From Filomicrobium sp. (GTDB lineage Bacteria > Pseudomonadota > Alphaproteobacteria > Rhizobiales > Hyphomicrobiaceae): a stretch of DNA of 64,000 nt. Both the position numbers and the translations under genes were made by a program. Shown piece after piece: positions 54,469 through 64,000 of this stretch. Each line of letters begins with the position of its first letter. The first letter of the stretch is position 1. The notes under the pieces are model-generated. The model had not been told where the DNA came from. It searched no databases and saw nothing but the letters and a program-made list of their open reading frames with translations. The stretch spans positions 2,172,606 through 2,236,605 of the forward strand of contig CP051234.1 of assembly GCA_017792465.1 (NCBI GenBank), read 5' to 3'.

Positions 54469-54545
54469 GCACCCGTAGCTCAGCTGGATAGAGTGTCGGA
54501 TTCCGATTCCGAAGGTCGCAGGTTCGACTCCTGCCGGGTGCGCCA
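54469..54545 (+). tRNA. tRNA-Arg (anticodon CCG)
   Basis: 77 bases including encoded CCA. Acceptor GCACCCG pairs with CGGGTGC; D stem GCTC/GAGT; anticodon stem TCGGA/TCCGA with loop TTCCGAT, anticodon CCG; T arm GCAGG-TTCGACT-CCTGC. It reads the CGG arginine codon. tRNA genes are common integration sites, and the genes to its right look accessory. Confidence 0.96.
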
Positions 54546-56766: not shown

Positions 56767-58929
56767 TCAATTAATTTGCCTGGCTACCCGGAAGCCGACA
56801 TAACGAAATTCGTTCAACGGGCGGGCTTCAGTCTTGGGCGGTGGCGAACGCGCGCTTGACCGGGCGTACCACCATTCTTCGTTGGCAGACCCGCCGCGCG
56901 TCATGTGCATGCAGGAGGGATCTGCGGAGAGTTGGCCGAGGGCACAATCGGAGACCCATTCTGCGACGTTGCCGTGCATGTCGTGCAGCCCGAATCCGTT
57001 GGCCGGGAAAGACCCAACGGGAACGGGGGACCCAGGGTCCGACGCCCAGCTTGATTTGAATGCGGCGGCGCCTTCCGCTCGAGACTCACCCCATGCATAT
57101 GCCGTGGTCGTGCCCGCGCGCGCGGCATACTCCCATTCCGCTTCGTTCAAGAGGCGGTAGGTTTCGCCAGTCTTGTTCGACAGCCACTTCACGTAGGCGC
57201 TCGCCTGCGCCCATGACACCTGCGAAACCGGCAAATTTGGATCGAAGCTCTTTTTGGGATCAGGAGCGATCCCCGTTATCTTTTGCCATTCGGGGTCCTG
57301 TTGCGCCGCGTTCCACTGTGTCATCGTCACTTCGAAGCGGGCCACCGCAATGCGATTGGGGATCGTCTTCAAGGCTCGCTCCTCGTCCAGCGAGTTGAAC
57401 TGCATCATCGACGACCCAGCTAAATAGGTTCCCGGTTCAAGGAGCACCATCTCCGGACAGGTCTGGCAATCCTTGAACGATGGACCGCGCGCGCCTTTTA
57501 CGTGCTGAGGTATTTCGAGCGTCAGCACCTGCGATACGAGCTGTAGCGCGATGTTGCACACTGGAGCGCCAAACGGTTCCCAGAGCCTTGACTTCAGGCG
57601 TTCAAAATAGCTCTCAGGCACGGTCATTTGCGGTTGTCTTCGGAGGACTGTGAGACGGGCAGTTCCTTGCGTGTCGATCGTCAACACGGCCTTGCCGCCG
57701 TCGACGAAGGCCGCTTCGACGAGGCTACCGTTGTGGCCGCCGACTTTCGCGATCGGTTTTGCGAGGCGCCAGATGCGCGCCGCTCCATCGCTATCTGCGG
57801 TGAGGCTCAGATCCATCTGGCCCGGGGACAGGTCGCCGTGGTCATGCGTTTTTTGAGGTGGCTCGGGGTGCGCCTCCATCAGCGCGACTTGGGACATTCC
57901 ATACAAGAGCACTGAGACAGGGACACCGACTGCAATCGCGCGGCGGAGGAACCACTGCAGACGGCGGCCGGTCGATTCATACGAGGCTGCCCAGAAGACG
58001 AGGCCAGAGAAGATGAAGTTCGGAATTGCAATACTAATTTCGGACGTCGGCATCACATCGACAGCCAGGACGCTTGCGAGCAGAAACGGTGATGCGGCGG
58101 CACCGGCAATGGAGAGGCGTTCGCTTTGGATCAGATAGATGAACGCGCCAACGAGCGTGGCGACCGCAAGTGCCGGCAAAAACGGATTGGCAAATATTGA
58201 AGAATGCGCCAGGAGTACTAAGGCGAGAATTCCAAGCAGAAAGAAGCCAAGCACGATGACCGCAATCGCATGCTTTCTGCTGGTGGGTTGCCATTTGATA
58301 ACACCGGTGGCCATGCCGAGCCTGAACGTCAGGATCGCAAAGCCGGCAACCGCGAAATAAACGCCAACAGGGTTGGATGCGAGAAGAGCGAGCTTGCCCG
58401 CGATCGCTGCAACCACCACGGCGACCAACGCAAGCGCTGACACCGCGAATGCTGCGATCCGCCAGGCTGACCTATTTGGAATTCCGCCCGTCGGCAACTT
58501 CTGATTGATTTCTTTCTGGGATGGTCGAAGCAATTCGGCTTCTGCCATCTTGTGCTTCACCGCCAGAACAATGCTTTTCCAAGCGCTGCTTGATCGATCG
58601 CCATTCCAGTCTTCCAATTTCAGTGTGTGTAAATATTCAAACGGTGATGGCGACAGCGAAGCATCCAAAGAAACAGGGATTATGCTTTGTTGCTGCTGGC
58701 CGAGTGCGGCTTCGTAAGCAACGCTCTTCGCGCGGACTGACGCTGCTGACCACAGCACCAACATGACTTTGGCGCGACGTATTTGCTGCTTGTTGGAGGT
58801 CTGGTCGGCTGCGTCAGCCGAGCCCTCGTTGTCCCAAGAGAGGGAAAAGCCTTCTTGCTCCAGCGCCAACGCTATCAACCTGGCTGTCGCCAAATCTTCG
58901 CGCGCGTAGCTTAAGTATACATCCGCCAT
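56767..58929 (-). CDS. TIR-transmembrane-FGE-sulfatase domain protein, candidate conflict-system component
   Basis: 720 residues from ATG 58929; a GTG lies one codon up. Residues 1-115 are a TIR domain (DVYLSYAREDLATARLIALA; SVAYEAALG holds the probable NADase Glu). Residues 155-345 have about six membrane helices. 365-440 hold one or two degenerate WD40-like blades (DGAARIWRL). The C-terminal 240 residues are an FGE/SUMF1 domain (VSWAQASAYVKWLSNKTGET, FGLHDMHGNVAEWVSDC, FRYVGFRVAR). TIR domains make NAD-derived signals or deplete NAD. The FGE part may bind peptide or another molecule as sensor. It is divergent from the TIR-iSTAND-MoxR operon across 155 bases. Confidence 0.85.
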   Translation of the reverse strand: MADVYLSYAREDLATARLIALALEQEGFSLSWDNEGSADAADQTSNKQQIRRAKVMLVLWSAASVRAKSVAYEAALGQQQQSIIPVSLDASLSPSPFEYLHTLKLEDWNGDRSSSAWKSIVLAVKHKMAEAELLRPSQKEINQKLPTGGIPNRSAWRIAAFAVSALALVAVVVAAIAGKLALLASNPVGVYFAVAGFAILTFRLGMATGVIKWQPTSRKHAIAVIVLGFFLLGILALVLLAHSSIFANPFLPALAVATLVGAFIYLIQSERLSIAGAAASPFLLASVLAVDVMPTSEISIAIPNFIFSGLVFWAASYESTGRRLQWFLRRAIAVGVPVSVLLYGMSQVALMEAHPEPPQKTHDHGDLSPGQMDLSLTADSDGAARIWRLAKPIAKVGGHNGSLVEAAFVDGGKAVLTIDTQGTARLTVLRRQPQMTVPESYFERLKSRLWEPFGAPVCNIALQLVSQVLTLEIPQHVKGARGPSFKDCQTCPEMVLLEPGTYLAGSSMMQFNSLDEERALKTIPNRIAVARFEVTMTQWNAAQQDPEWQKITGIAPDPKKSFDPNLPVSQVSWAQASAYVKWLSNKTGETYRLLNEAEWEYAARAGTTTAYAWGESRAEGAAAFKSSWASDPGSPVPVGSFPANGFGLHDMHGNVAEWVSDCALGQLSADPSCMHMTRGGSANEEWWYARSSARSPPPKTEARPLNEFRYVGFRVARQIN

Positions 58930-59084
58930 CACAACTAACCTGCGGCAGCAACCTCACACCGCTTCAACAAACCCTACCCGGTGGTCGAGTTCAAGCCTTG
59001 GCTTTCCGGACATCCGAGGAATAGTATGAGGCGTCGCAAATTTAGCTATTTCATTCACCCGGCAAGTTCTTTTTTGGCTCGTCC

Positions 59085-60491
59085 ATGACCTTCGTTTTTG
59101 TCAGCCATGCCAACACCGATAAGAAGCGCGTCCGGCACATTGTCGATGCGTTGATTTCGGCTAACATCAAGGTGTGGATGGATAATCCCCTGGCAGCGGG
59201 CTATTCGGCCGATGAGGTCAGGGCGCATTTTCATCGGATCAAAGCGGGCACCTCCTGGAAGGACGAAATAGAAGATGCGCTGAGAGACGCGCGTCTGGTC
59301 ATCGTCTGTTTCTCGGAGGCTTTCAAAGAGCCGCGCCGCGAGGTTTTCCGGGAAGAAGCGATTATTGCGCGCCAGGGCAAGAAGCTCGTCGGTTGCCGCG
59401 TTGATGACGTTGACCCAACGACGCTTCCCTACGACTTCGGAAAGGCTGAAATAAAAGATTTACGACAGGATCTGCCGGACCCCGGCGGAGCGCGGACGCT
59501 GCTTGGGCAGGTCAAGCGGCTGCCGCGCATTGTCGAGGACCTCGATGCGGCGCTGCAGCTCTTCGTTGAGGATTTGCGCGCTAGATTGCACGCCCGCAAC
59601 GACGACCTTGCCCGGAACCGGCAACATCAGGCTCGCGATCCGTTCCTTCCTTTTCTCGTCGACAGGACGGATCAGGAAGAGTCGGTCGAACACGCGATTG
59701 AAGAAATCGCCAAGACCGGCGGCGTGCGCCCGTTCTTTGTCGCCGGTCCGGAAAACGAGTGCCTTCTGGAATTTCGCGACCGGCTTGAGCGGCATGCCAT
59801 TCCCCGTCGTCTCAAAGGTCCGTCCTGGCAAGCGCTGACCGTCGAGTGGCCCGACAAGCAGCCTTTGGCAAAATTCGGCAGTCTTTATCAAAGACGGCTG
59901 GCCGATGCGCTCGGGCTATCGTCGGCAGCGAGCCAACGGGAAATCGCTGCCAAGCTTGCCGATCTGCAAATCCCGGCCGCCCCACTGAGCTTTCTGTCTC
60001 CAACGGGTTTCAAGCAGGACACGGCCAAGCGCATCGAAGCCTGGCTTGAGTTCTGGCGCGAGCTTGAAGCTGAGAAGCTTGGCTTTGCCGCGGTTCCGAT
60101 GGTCTGGATGAAGTTCCCCAAGGCCGAGCCTGGATGGGAAAACTGTCCGCCCGGTCGGGCCGTGAGCGCGCTTTTTTCCAACGACCAGATCTGGGCGATT
60201 ATCGAAAGCCTTGGCCGGGAGCATCAAAAGCCGGGTTGGTTTGGCGGCATGTTCGGCGGAGGCCATCAAGGCTGCGGTCTGGAGATCCCGCCGATGCTGC
60301 ACCCGATCAGCGACGATCATGTCTCAGCGTGGACTTCAAAACACCTCAACGATGCGACTCCCGGCGAACGTGCCGAAGTCATGTCGGTATGGGGCAAGAT
60401 CTGTACGGCATCAAAGTGTGGATCTGTGAGCTTGCAGGACTTCGCAAAGACAATGGGCCGGGTTCTCGATGGATCTCTGGCAGGACGATAA
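59085..60491 (+). CDS. TIR domain fused to an iSTAND-like (inactive P-loop NTPase) domain
   Basis: 468 residues. TIR at 1-150: FVFVSHANTDKKRVRHIVDA, IKVWMDN and SEAFKEPRREVFREEAIIA, with a plausible catalytic Glu in the last block. From about 185, FLPFLVDRTDQEESVEHAIE then PFFVAGPENECLLEFRDRLE resembles the iSTAND domain (usually NRSDQE...LIHGDEHECHDKF), a STAND-like NTPase fold lacking Walker A. The C-terminal part continues that fold (KIEAWLEFW-like region, WVKFPKA-like WMKFPKAEPGWENC). It probably couples recognition to TIR activity. moxR-like gene starts 51 bases after. Confidence 0.8.
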   Translation: MTFVFVSHANTDKKRVRHIVDALISANIKVWMDNPLAAGYSADEVRAHFHRIKAGTSWKDEIEDALRDARLVIVCFSEAFKEPRREVFREEAIIARQGKKLVGCRVDDVDPTTLPYDFGKAEIKDLRQDLPDPGGARTLLGQVKRLPRIVEDLDAALQLFVEDLRARLHARNDDLARNRQHQARDPFLPFLVDRTDQEESVEHAIEEIAKTGGVRPFFVAGPENECLLEFRDRLERHAIPRRLKGPSWQALTVEWPDKQPLAKFGSLYQRRLADALGLSSAASQREIAAKLADLQIPAAPLSFLSPTGFKQDTAKRIEAWLEFWRELEAEKLGFAAVPMVWMKFPKAEPGWENCPPGRAVSALFSNDQIWAIIESLGREHQKPGWFGGMFGGGHQGCGLEIPPMLHPISDDHVSAWTSKHLNDATPGERAEVMSVWGKICTASKCGSVSLQDFAKTMGRVLDGSLAGR

Positions 60492-60542: not shown

Positions 60543-61589
60543 ATGAGTTATCCCTATTTCCGGCGTGGGCTCCCCGAACAAGAGGGGCAGCCTGCAGGCG
60601 TCATGAAGGCTGAGGAGATCCCGACGCTCAGCCGGCTTGAAGACCCCAGCGATTATATCCCGCACCCCAATCTCAGCCATGCCGTCAATGTCTCGTTGAT
60701 GCTCGGCATGCCGCTGTTGTTGACGGGGGAACCGGGCACCGGAAAGACCCAGCTCTCCTACACGCTCGCGAACGATCTGGGCTGTCCCATCCATCGCTTC
60801 GATACCAAATCAACGAGCGTCGCGCGCGATCTGTTTTACACCTACGATGCCATGTCGGCCTTCAAGCAGAAGGACGAAAGCGATCCGATCAACTTCATTC
60901 ACTATGAAGCGCTTGGGCGGGCGATTCTCGATTCCTTCCCGGCCGAAGATCCGCGCGTGGCGAGACTATTACCTCCGCTGGGAAGGTCCGATTATGCGCA
61001 TCAGGGTCCGCGCCGCTCTGTCGTGTTGATCGATGAGATCGACAAGGCACCGCGCGATTTCCCCAACGACCTGCTCAACGAAATCGAGCGGCTGTTCTTT
61101 CGCATCCCGGAATTGAACAACTGGGGGTCTCCAGGTGCGGATTCGAACGTCACTGCCGTCCAGGATAGCTATCGCCCGATAATCGTGATGACGTCGAACT
61201 CGGAGAAAGGTCTGCCCGATCCGTTCCTGCGCCGGTGCGTCTATTTCGACATTCCGTTTCCCAACGCAGACACGATGCGCCGTATCGTTTCATCGCGGAT
61301 GCGGTCGCGGGGCGTGGGCGACCCGTTGATCGAAGAGGCGATCGATCTGTTCTACAGGTTGCGCCACGATCACCCCGAACGCCAATTGCACCTCAAAAAG
61401 CAGCCCTCGACCGCGGAACTGATCAATTGGCTGCAAGTTCTGAGCGCGCGGAGCGATCGCCAGGATTTGTCACTCAAAGACCAGCGCTATCTTATTCAGG
61501 AGACGTTACCAACTCTCGTCAAGAACGCCGACGACCAGGCTGCTGCCGAGCGCTATGTCGTCGACCGGTGGGGACGTGACGGCACCTAG
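60543..61589 (+). CDS. MoxR-type AAA+ ATPase of the island
   Basis: 348 residues. Walker A TGEPGTGKTQL is at about 61-71, Walker B SVVLIDEIDKAP near 158-169, sensor 1 is IIVMTSNSEKGLPDPFLRRC with the arginine finger, and the lid domain starts LIEEAIDLFYRLRHDHPERQ. MoxR ATPases remodel or activate vWA-containing partners. The next gene, ten bases downstream, supplies a vWA-like domain, and the preceding gene a TIR-iSTAND protein. GGGAG precedes ATG 60543. Two inserted segments after Walker A (DAMSAFKQKDESDPINFIHY) are typical of the defence-associated subset. Confidence 0.9.
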   Translation: MSYPYFRRGLPEQEGQPAGVMKAEEIPTLSRLEDPSDYIPHPNLSHAVNVSLMLGMPLLLTGEPGTGKTQLSYTLANDLGCPIHRFDTKSTSVARDLFYTYDAMSAFKQKDESDPINFIHYEALGRAILDSFPAEDPRVARLLPPLGRSDYAHQGPRRSVVLIDEIDKAPRDFPNDLLNEIERLFFRIPELNNWGSPGADSNVTAVQDSYRPIIVMTSNSEKGLPDPFLRRCVYFDIPFPNADTMRRIVSSRMRSRGVGDPLIEEAIDLFYRLRHDHPERQLHLKKQPSTAELINWLQVLSARSDRQDLSLKDQRYLIQETLPTLVKNADDQAAAERYVVDRWGRDGT

Positions 61590-61599
61590 GAGACCTGCG

Positions 61600-64000
61600 G
61601 TGGCGGACGCGGCCAAAATCTCTGAGACGGCACTGGGGGAACAGCTCGAAGCGCTGCTCGATGCGCTCGCAAATGCTGGCCTCTATGTCGGTCCGCGTGA
61701 AAGAATTCTCGCCACGCGTTTGGCCGTCGAGCTGATCGGTCGCGGACAGGCGGCTTCGTTGTCAGACATGCGCCCCTCGCTTGGAGCAGTTCTCGCGCGA
61801 TCCCCTGAGGAACGGGAGATTTTCGAACGGACCTTTCGTGCATTCCAGCCGCAGGCCTCTTACGACTTCGTCGAGCCGGACCCAGTACCGAAACGGCCAA
61901 CCAAAACCGGGCCAAAACAGGCGTGGTCGAAGTGGGGCTTTCTGGCGCTTGTCATTGGCCTCATCGCCGCTGGGCTCATTTGGCGTACACTCGAAACGGC
62001 CGGTCCCGGGATAGACAAAAGCGACAAGGACAACCTCGAGATCCCTGAATTGCCTTTGGCTCAGTCGAACGCCAATGTCGACAAAGCCGACGACATTGAA
62101 GAGGCAAGCCCCATCCTTGAGCGGGTTCGCGAAGCCTCCCGCGTGTTTGCGTCGGCCCCGACGATCGACGAGTTGGCTTCCGCACTGGATCGCAAGGAAG
62201 GTTGGCGGCTTTCGGGGTATGCCATTCGACTGCATGAACTGACAGGATTGCCGCGCCGGCAGCCGCTGGCGATCTACGGTTCGAATGGCGCGATCTGGGC
62301 GCGGCTGGCGCATGCGCTCGACAGAATAGAAAATCCCGGCGCCGAAAAGACTTTGCGCAGATATACCAAAGAGGCCGCAGCCTCATTGAATGCCGAGCAG
62401 GCCGAGCCGCTGCCGCAAATCTACGCTCTTTCAGATCGGATCGGAGTGTGGCTGACAGACCGTGCGCCGCAACCCAACGAAACAAAGACCGTTCTTTTCG
62501 GAAGGATCGAAACGCAGCGCCAGGCAGCACTCAAACAAAGCGGGGCTGGTCCTCTCCCGCCCCTTGATCCGTTCCTGGTGGAGCGGGCGTTGGCGATTTC
62601 GACTGATCCGAAAATCCGCAGGGTCTTTGCCGATGCTCATTGGTTCACGCGCGGCAAGCCTTCGCAAGCTGCTACGGCGCCGGATTGGGCTCCCTTTGCT
62701 GCCGCGCTGATCCCGCTATCGCTGGCGCTCATCTGGCTCATCAACAGTCTCGCCCTGCGCAAAGCCTACCTGCGCAGACGGCCGCCGCAACGCCGCCCGG
62801 AACATGTGCAGCTTGTTGCCGACGCCGCCAACCAGATCGGCGAGTTCGGCAGTAAGTTCAGGCGGATCTCCCAACAACTGGCAACCCGCACATCGACGCG
62901 GACCGGCCGCATCGACGTTGCCGGCACAATCCGCGCCGCGATTGCGGACGGGACCGGGATGATCCGGCCGGTCTATGAAGAAGCGACGCGCGCGCCGGAA
63001 TATCTTGTTCTCATCGAGCGCAGGTCGGCGGGCGATCAGGAAGCGCGCCGACACCGGGAACTGGTGCGCCAGCTCGAAGGCTTACTTCATTTCAACGTTT
63101 TTTATTTCCGCACCGAGCCCTCGATCCTCGAACCTGACGGTGGCGGCAAGCCGATTGCAATCGAACGGCTGCGCTCAAGCCATGCCGGGCAGAGACTTCT
63201 GGTTATTGGGTCGGGCATCGGCTTTCTCGATCCGGTCGACTTCGAACCCCTGCCGGCCGCACAGGTCCTGACCCATTGGGACTACCGGGCTTTGCTGACG
63301 CCTGTTCCGCTGGCCGAGTGGGGGCGGGAAGAATTCGAACTTGCGCGGCAACTGAATATGCCGGTCGGGCGTGCGACCGTCGAAGGGCTGACAGGGCTTT
63401 CGGAGCTTCTGGGGCTTGAAGGCAATCTTTCCCGCGACAGCGTCGAACCGCACGGAGATGCACTGGCTCGGCCGCTGCCAGAAGTGTTCCGGTTGCGACC
63501 TCAGCGGCTGCTCTATGACACCCCGCCAACCGACTTGCCGGAAGAACAGGTATTGCAGGACCTGCGTAACTTCCTCGATCCGGCGAGCTTTGACTGGCTT
63601 TGTGCTCTGGCCGTCTATCCGGCGGTGCAGTGGGACCTGACGATTTATCTTGGCGTTGCACTGCCTGAAACGGCCGGCGGCGATCCGGCCCGGGCTCCGC
63701 TATATAACGAAGCTCGCATAGCGGCGCTGACCCAGCTGCCGTGGCTGCGCGAAGGCATGATGCCGAACTGGCTTCGCCGCGCCTTGATGCGAGAAATGCC
63801 GCCCAAGCGCAGCAAGGAAGTGCGCCGGGCTTTGGCCGCCGTGCTCGAACAAGCCCGCGAGCAGGATGGCGCGTTTTCCGACAGCGCGGTCAAGTTCGAT
63901 ATCTCGCGCGAGGTCGCTCAATCCGCGCTCGCGGAAACCTTCGATGACGAAGTGCTGCTCGACTTTCTCGCACGCGGCGACATCGAAGACCTGAAAGTCG
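61600..64000 (+). CDS. Membrane protein with vWA-like domain, runs off window
   Basis: From GTG 61600 the frame is open to the last base (at least 800 residues), so no stop is seen. Helices: TM1 about 112-130 (WGFLALVIGLIAAGLIW), TM2 about 365-386 (FAAALIPLSLALIWLINSLA). After TM2 a polar stretch (QLATRTSTRTGRIDVAGTIR) leads to a vWA-like segment from about 450: EYLVLIERRSAGDQEARRHR, GQRLLVIGSGIGFLDP, ALLTPVPLAEWGREEFE. No DxSxS metal site is seen; ER replaces it. MoxR-linked proteins of conflict systems have this layout. It likely couples to the ATPase ten bases upstream, at the membrane. Confidence 0.75.
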   Translation, partial: MADAAKISETALGEQLEALLDALANAGLYVGPRERILATRLAVELIGRGQAASLSDMRPSLGAVLARSPEEREIFERTFRAFQPQASYDFVEPDPVPKRPTKTGPKQAWSKWGFLALVIGLIAAGLIWRTLETAGPGIDKSDKDNLEIPELPLAQSNANVDKADDIEEASPILERVREASRVFASAPTIDELASALDRKEGWRLSGYAIRLHELTGLPRRQPLAIYGSNGAIWARLAHALDRIENPGAEKTLRRYTKEAAASLNAEQAEPLPQIYALSDRIGVWLTDRAPQPNETKTVLFGRIETQRQAALKQSGAGPLPPLDPFLVERALAISTDPKIRRVFADAHWFTRGKPSQAATAPDWAPFAAALIPLSLALIWLINSLALRKAYLRRRPPQRRPEHVQLVADAANQIGEFGSKFRRISQQLATRTSTRTGRIDVAGTIRAAIADGTGMIRPVYEEATRAPEYLVLIERRSAGDQEARRHRELVRQLEGLLHFNVFYFRTEPSILEPDGGGKPIAIERLRSSHAGQRLLVIGSGIGFLDPVDFEPLPAAQVLTHWDYRALLTPVPLAEWGREEFELARQLNMPVGRATVEGLTGLSELLGLEGNLSRDSVEPHGDALARPLPEVFRLRPQRLLYDTPPTDLPEEQVLQDLRNFLDPASFDWLCALAVYPAVQWDLTIYLGVALPETAGGDPARAPLYNEARIAALTQLPWLREGMMPNWLRRALMREMPPKRSKEVRRALAAVLEQAREQDGAFSDSAVKFDISREVAQSALAETFDDEVLLDFLARGDIEDLKV

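What the first reader, a model, noticed from the sequence alone, without database searches (positions are those of the whole stretch)
56767..58929. Membrane-spanning TIR linked to an FGE/SUMF1-type domain through degenerate WD40-like blades
Three module classes in one 720-residue chain. FGE domains in such places seem to act as binding rather than formylglycine-making domains (no partner sulfatase nearby). Topology decides function: with about six helices the TIR and FGE ends may be on the same side of the membrane.
Basis: partly seen in the sequence, partly recalled or inferred. Interest (0 to 1): 0.6.

Follow-up and report, generated by a model that had tools for sequence, protein, structure and literature searches.

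The report
Membrane TIR protein with outside FGE-fold domain
This bacterial gene makes one membrane protein that probably carries a cell-suicide-type TIR enzyme inside the cell and a ligand-binding FGE-fold domain outside it, so it looks like a receptor in the style of animal Toll receptors; it is a new multi-helix version of a modular family already seen in related bacteria.

Summary
The ORF is real and the module calls hold: TIR (1-126), a membrane region, about two degenerate WD40 blades, and an FGE-fold domain (483-720). A membrane-insertion free-energy scale gives 3, 5 or 7 segments at cut-offs of 0, 1 or 2 kcal; the count is odd each time. Loop charge fits TIR inside and FGE outside, though a six-helix model without the last segment fits charge equally well. 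An independent marker separates the two. In TIR-FGE fusions with a membrane segment, a cysteine pair stands at the FGE start (11 of 11); in fusions without one it is lost (0 of 4). This protein has the pair (C489/C492). The FGE domain lacks both catalytic cysteines, so it should not make formylglycine; the same genome has a genuine FGE beside a sulfatase 1.3 Mb away. The TIR keeps its invariant glutamate (E74). The gene lies in a tRNA-Arg-bounded variable region, divergent from a TIR-iSTAND/MoxR/vWA-like conflict system. Simpler TIR-1TM-FGE relatives exist; the seven-helix, WD40-remnant form was found nowhere else. Best reading: an outside-sensing, inside-acting TIR receptor for defence or stress. 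New variant of a known kind; function inferred.

The parts
56767..58932 (-). whole gene, 721 aa from GTG (720 from ATG at 58929): TIR - 7 TM - WD40 remnant - FGE-fold domain. Residue numbers below count the GTG as residue 1
58555..58920 (-). TIR domain, residues 5-126; predicted cytosolic
   Evidence: Pfam TIR_2 E 1e-11; AlphaFold pLDDT mostly about 75-95 in this part; fold matches SPARTA and SARM1 TIRs at Z about 15
58711..58713 (-). E74, glutamate at the catalytic-Glu position of NAD-cleaving TIRs
   Evidence: invariant in the 10 aligned TIRs, neighbour TIR-iSTAND included; equivalence to the NADase Glu is from established knowledge
58399..58467 (-). TM1, residues 156-178 (dG -2.2)
58297..58368 (-). 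TM2, residues 189-212 (dG -0.5)
58207..58269 (-). TM3, residues 222-242 (dG -3.1)
58129..58197 (-). TM4, residues 246-268 (dG 0.2)
58051..58119 (-). TM5, residues 272-294 (dG 1.6, weak)
57979..58038 (-). TM6, residues 299-318 (dG 1.6, weak)
57892..57954 (-). TM7, residues 327-347 (dG 0.7)
57640..57837 (-). degenerate WD40-like stretch, residues 366-431, about two blades; predicted periplasmic
   Evidence: BLASTP to WD40 proteins of relatives, E 7e-9 to 1e-6; three predicted strands 403-429 at low confidence
56773..57486 (-). FGE/PvdO-type domain (C-type-lectin-like fold), residues 483-720; predicted periplasmic
   Evidence: Pfam E 4e-36; PvdO 5hha Z 26.2 over 224 residues
57457..57468 (-). C489/C492 pair in FKDCQTCPEM; compartment-tracking motif
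56911..56946 (-). C663/C674, second pair; both partners absent in TM-less TIR-FGE fusions
56857..56895 (-). residues 680-692, GGSANEEWWYARS: the place of the two catalytic cysteines of genuine FGE; none here
54469..54545 (+). tRNA-Arg(CCG), edge of the variable region that holds this gene
59085..60491 (+). divergent neighbour, TIR-iSTAND protein of a MoxR-vWA-type conflict system
   Evidence: Pfam iSTAND E 6e-8, TIR_2 E 1e-15
60543..61589 (+). MoxR-type AAA+ ATPase of that system
   Evidence: AAA_5 E 8e-8; 44-50% identical to MoxR genes of similar loci
61555..64000 (+). start of the 2083-aa vWA-like membrane protein of that system (full gene L001:561-6812), with S11, M23 and Amidase_3 domains at its C-terminal end

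Best explanation
A seven-helix inner-membrane receptor of reversed Toll type. The N-terminal TIR is cytosolic and the C-terminal WD40 remnant plus FGE-fold domain is in the periplasm. The FGE-fold domain is not a formylglycine maker; it is a disulphide-bearing binding or sensing domain of the PvdO/C-type-lectin fold. Binding of an envelope ligand (phage component, damage product or partner protein) is proposed to cluster the protein, so that the TIR domains assemble and cleave NAD+ or a related nucleotide, starving the cell or making a signal. Shown by computation: modules, odd helix count at every cut-off tried, cysteine-marker association, loss of the FGE cysteines, retained TIR glutamate, placement in a variable region next to a predicted conflict system. 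Inferred: disulphides, ligand sensing, clustering, NAD+ cleavage, a role in defence.
For: Segments at 0, 1 and 2 kcal cut-offs: 3, 5 and 7; K+R in the seven-helix model 9 inside and 2 outside. In the 15 other TIR-FGE fusions of relatives, the cysteine pair at the FGE start is in all 11 with a hydrophobic segment (KD of at least 1.55) and in none of the 4 without; wider same-subfamily set 49/7 against 2/7, P 1.4e-4. Relatives with one segment, such as L096, L098, L111 and the named-record L150, give the same inside/outside plan. The genome's own TIR-TM paralogs carry other C-terminal modules after one segment: a Cys-rich domain (L117) or WD40-TPR (L116). FGE catalytic cysteines absent in this and in the 174 other aligned domains but present in the genome's genuine FGE. 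E74 invariant. Variable region starts at a tRNA-Arg that four same-genus genomes share while what follows differs.
Against: Charge and hydropathy alone do not exclude a six-helix model lacking the last segment (K+R 11 to 1). In the GTDB set the cysteine test is not significant (P 0.10), because another FGE subfamily is exported without this pair; so 'pair implies export' holds better than the reverse. The 1.55 cut-off was set after seeing the data; at 1.6 the TIR-FGE split is 9 of 9 against 2 of 6. Related sequences are not independent events. AlphaFold is poor over the later helices and linker. No ligand, NAD+ cleavage or phenotype is known, and no ortholog was found to test conservation.
Confidence: 0.52

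Rival explanations
1. The protein is an effector arm of the divergent iSTAND/MoxR/vWA-like system: that system senses the invader and this TIR protein is switched on by it, its FGE/WD40 part docking to the propeller and periplasmic part of the vWA-like protein.
For: 152 bp between divergent starts; both genes lie in the same variable region and neither was found in same-genus genomes; both proteins pair membrane spans with a propeller-like stretch and a periplasmic-type C-terminal part; FGS domains are reported as effectors in related ternary systems (PMC7159879).
Against: Three other loci with the same MoxR type (L232, L233, L234) have no such gene within the 20 kb read. No sequence similarity beyond what TM composition gives between the two proteins' shared parts. 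No shared adaptor domain.
Confidence: 0.2
2. One reading: an even number of helices, TIR and FGE on the same, cytosolic side; FGE binds an intracellular invader molecule as proposed for FGS domains in STAND systems.
For: The six-helix model without TM7 fits loop charges as well; published proposals treat FGS as an intracellular sensor (PMC8195603).
Against: TM7 scores better than TM5 and TM6, so dropping TM7 alone is unlikely. Cysteine pairs that TM-less TIR-FGE proteins lack are present.
Confidence: 0.13
3. The outside FGE-fold domain is an enzyme of another kind, as PvdO (oxidation of a small molecule in the periplasm), and the TIR is a regulatory or anchoring partner.
For: Closest solved fold and closest named family is PvdO.
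Against: Score 133 against a cut-off of 500 for the PvdO equivalog; the same FGE subfamily is joined to caspases, TIRs, STAND and pentapeptide proteins with no common pathway, which suits a binding module better.
Confidence: 0.1

Closest known systems
TIR-1TM-FGE fusions of related bacteria (for example L096, L098, L111, L150)
   Same: TIR, membrane span, PvdO-type FGE domain with the cysteine pair
   Different: One membrane segment instead of seven; no WD40 remnant
FGS (FGE-fold) domains in STAND, VMAP and DGR conflict systems (PMC7159879, PMC8195603, PMC10907252)
   Same: FGE fold fused to TIR, caspase or STAND parts in predicted immunity
   Different: Usually described as intracellular and often diversified by a DGR; here probably periplasmic, with no separate DGR reverse transcriptase recognised and no repeat of the 3' end found
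Prokaryotic caspase-FGE proteins (PMC3501461)
   Same: FGE module joined to an effector domain; such fusions seen here are often exported
   Different: Protease instead of TIR; the paper speculated that the FGE part makes formylglycine, which the missing cysteines in the sequences seen here speak against
PvdO (5hha)
   Same: FGE fold, CxxCPEM start, best structural match
   Different: Stand-alone protein of siderophore synthesis
Animal Toll-like receptors
   Same: Outside sensing part, inside TIR
   Different: Opposite order in the chain, one helix instead of several, unrelated ectodomain; analogy only

Membership tests
Formylglycine-generating enzyme (SUMF1/FGE) | FGE fold | tested here: met
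   Z 22.8 to 5nxl over 213 residues; Pfam E 4e-36
Formylglycine-generating enzyme (SUMF1/FGE) | two catalytic cysteines (GGSYMCHRSYC in human FGE) | tested here: not met
   GGSANEEWWYARS in this protein; genuine FGE L003 of the same genome has GGSYLCAFNYC
Formylglycine-generating enzyme (SUMF1/FGE) | sulfatase partner nearby | tested here: not met
   two sulfatases, at 0.87 and 0.93 Mb, this gene at 2.23 Mb; one sits beside the genuine FGE
PvdO (NF051459 equivalog) | family score cut-off | tested here: not met
   132.9 bits against 500
TIR NADases | TIR fold | tested here: met
TIR NADases | catalytic glutamate | tested here: met
   E74 invariant across 10 aligned TIRs; position equivalence from established knowledge
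TIR NADases | NAD+ cleavage | not testable with these tools
   needs an assay
WD40 propeller | enough blades to close a propeller (four or more) | tested here: not met
   about two units, no Pfam call
DGR-diversified FGS receptor | DGR reverse transcriptase and template repeat of the 3' end | tested here: not met
   only RVT_1 in the genome is an RT-TIR fusion; no repeat of the gene's 3' end apart from one 36-base match
iSTAND MoxR-vWA ternary system (neighbour) | iSTAND third component and MoxR ATPase | tested here: met
iSTAND MoxR-vWA ternary system (neighbour) | vWA domain | tested here: inconclusive
   VWA_CoxE 16.1 bits, cut-off 26.4
iSTAND MoxR-vWA ternary system (neighbour) | this TIR-FGE gene is a conserved component | tested here: not met
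   absent at three similar loci

The most novel reading that the evidence does not exclude
A bacterial polytopic TIR receptor that senses an envelope ligand with an outside FGE-fold domain and triggers an inside NADase, paired in one variable region with an iSTAND ternary system whose membrane protein carries three peptidoglycan-acting domains, so that one locus couples envelope sensing to NAD+ loss and wall breakdown.
Probability: 0.25. Interest if true: 0.7.

Novelty: new variant of a known kind. Interest (0 to 1): 0.42.

Why it matters
FGE-fold domains in bacterial immunity have been proposed as intracellular sensors. If the topology here is right, a group of TIR-TM-FGE proteins senses outside the inner membrane and acts inside, which can be tested with a few reporter fusions. 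The cysteine pairs offer a simple sequence marker for which FGE-fold domains of this subfamily are exported.

Tried and rejected
Ortholog search: one genome-contig scan with the whole protein found no relative (the method finds close relatives only); the TM region found no convincing relative in 297 relatives, 385 class and 103 family genomes, which overlap in part. Short hits with E about 1e-3 were dismissed: some hold stop codons, some are ORFs of other proteins (L041 and L043, which look like a tRNA synthetase). Homology of the TM-WD40 part with the neighbour's TM-propeller part: above most residue shuffles, but the alignment lies in the membrane segments and may be composition only. DGR diversification: rejected. 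Plasmids: only FGE-domain hits, none full length. TIR against PDB by sequence: no hit. tRNA end repeats as attachment sites: none found. Sigma-70 promoters between the divergent genes: none by consensus. Rfam: only the tRNA. PADLOC: no hit for this protein.

Full report
The gene. The minus-strand frame 56767-58932 encodes 721 residues from a GTG, or 720 from the next codon, an ATG, which is probably the true start. Pfam finds TIR_2 at 5-109 and FGE-sulfatase at 492-718. The WD40-like stretch gets no Pfam call but matches WD40 proteins of relatives at E 7e-9 to 1e-6 over about two units.

Membrane topology. Hydropathy gives seven peaks in residues 154-353. A free-energy scale for membrane insertion (parameters recalled, not taken from a tool) gives 3, 5 and 7 segments at 0, 1 and 2 kcal. 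In the seven-helix model lysine and arginine are 9 inside and 2 outside. A six-helix model without TM7 also fits (11 to 1), so charge alone is not decisive, but TM7 is better than TM5 and TM6. AlphaFold shows helices at the same places, with low confidence from residue 267 on.

An independent marker. I collected TIR-FGE fusions from genomes of the same order. Excluding this protein there were 15. The motif F(R/K)DCxxCPEM, or a variant with more residues between the two cysteines, stands at the FGE start in all 11 with a hydrophobic segment of KD 1.55 or more before it, and the cysteines are gone in all 4 without a segment. By arithmetic on these counts the chance is 1 in 1365. With a stricter cut-off of 1.6 the split is 9 of 9 against 2 of 6. 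The cut-off was chosen after seeing the data and the sequences are related, so this is support, not proof. A second cysteine pair (C663/C674 here) behaves the same way in the alignments. In the wider same-subfamily set, the table is 49/7 against 2/7, P 1.4e-4; in an independent GTDB set it is 29/4 against 9/5, P 0.10, because another FGE subfamily is exported without this pair. Having the pair therefore predicts export better than lacking it predicts the cytosol. This protein has both pairs. That they form disulphides is inferred.

The FGE domain. The fold matches PvdO best (Z 26.2), then the Treponema variable protein TvpA, PorK and true FGEs. The catalytic cysteines of FGE are missing, as in the 174 other domains aligned with it; only the genuine FGE of this genome, L003, has them. 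L003 aligns to human FGE at E 1e-69 with both cysteines and lies about 0.3 kb from a sulfatase. Formylglycine formation by the window protein is therefore unlikely. A binding role is inferred from the many unrelated partners of this subfamily (TIR, caspase, STAND, pentapeptide) and from published proposals for FGS domains (PMC8195603).

The TIR domain. E74 lies at the invariant glutamate of the aligned TIRs, and the fold matches SPARTA and SARM1 TIRs. NAD+ cleavage is an inference from family knowledge.

Family setting. The same genome has ten TIR matches, among them TIR-TM-Cys-rich, TIR-TM-WD40-TPR, TIR-TM-TPR and TIR-patatin proteins and an RT-TIR fusion. Names of the non-TIR parts in this list, apart from the reverse transcriptase, are my reading of the sequences, not profile calls. 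The window protein fits this modular set. Its seven-helix region had no convincing relative in any genome searched.

Genomic setting. In four same-genus genomes polA and tRNA-Arg(CCG) are next to each other as in the window, and what follows the tRNA differs from the window. So the gene sits in a variable region; no attachment repeat was found. The divergent neighbours, 152 bp away, are TIR-iSTAND, MoxR and a 2083-residue vWA-like membrane protein with peptidase S11, M23 and amidase domains at its end. This fits the iSTAND MoxR-vWA ternary conflict systems (PMC7159879), although the vWA call itself is weak. Similar loci L232-L234 lack the TIR-FGE gene, so it is not a fixed part.

Conclusion. 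The most likely reading is a membrane receptor that senses outside with a non-catalytic FGE-fold domain and acts inside through its TIR. Topology: about 0.75 likely. Sensing and NAD+ cleavage: plausible, untested. It is a new variant of a known kind.

Noticed in passing
window 61555-64000 and L001:561-6812: vWA-like protein of an iSTAND/MoxR system with nine predicted membrane segments, a propeller-like stretch and three peptidoglycan-acting domains in a row (D,D-carboxypeptidase S11, M23, Amidase_3). The passages read from the 2020 survey list peptidoglycan-binding but not hydrolysing effectors for such systems.
   Followed up: partly
L232:9939-18641 and L233:5101-9525: Relatives of that vWA-like protein carry instead a propeller with periplasmic-binding-protein-like and (L232) caspase-like parts, by my reading of the sequence; the C-terminal module is swapped between genomes.
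   Followed up: partly
L118 (G000:C1:1023000-1027500): Reverse transcriptase fused to a TIR domain, retron-like; the only RVT_1 match in the genome.
   Followed up: no
L117 (G000:C1:1933000-1938000): TIR, one membrane segment and a Cys-rich domain resembling PAN: another possible inside-TIR, outside-sensor design.
   Followed up: no
L121 (G000:C1:866000-870500): TIR apparently fused to a patatin-like phospholipase.
   Followed up: no
L190:2928-5063 and L190:6639-8714, L141:889-3060: Alphaproteobacterial proteins with one membrane segment and an FGE domain behind a divergent start that looks TIR-like (partial TIR match in L190:2928-5063 and L141 only); two such genes lie close together in L190.
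   Followed up: no
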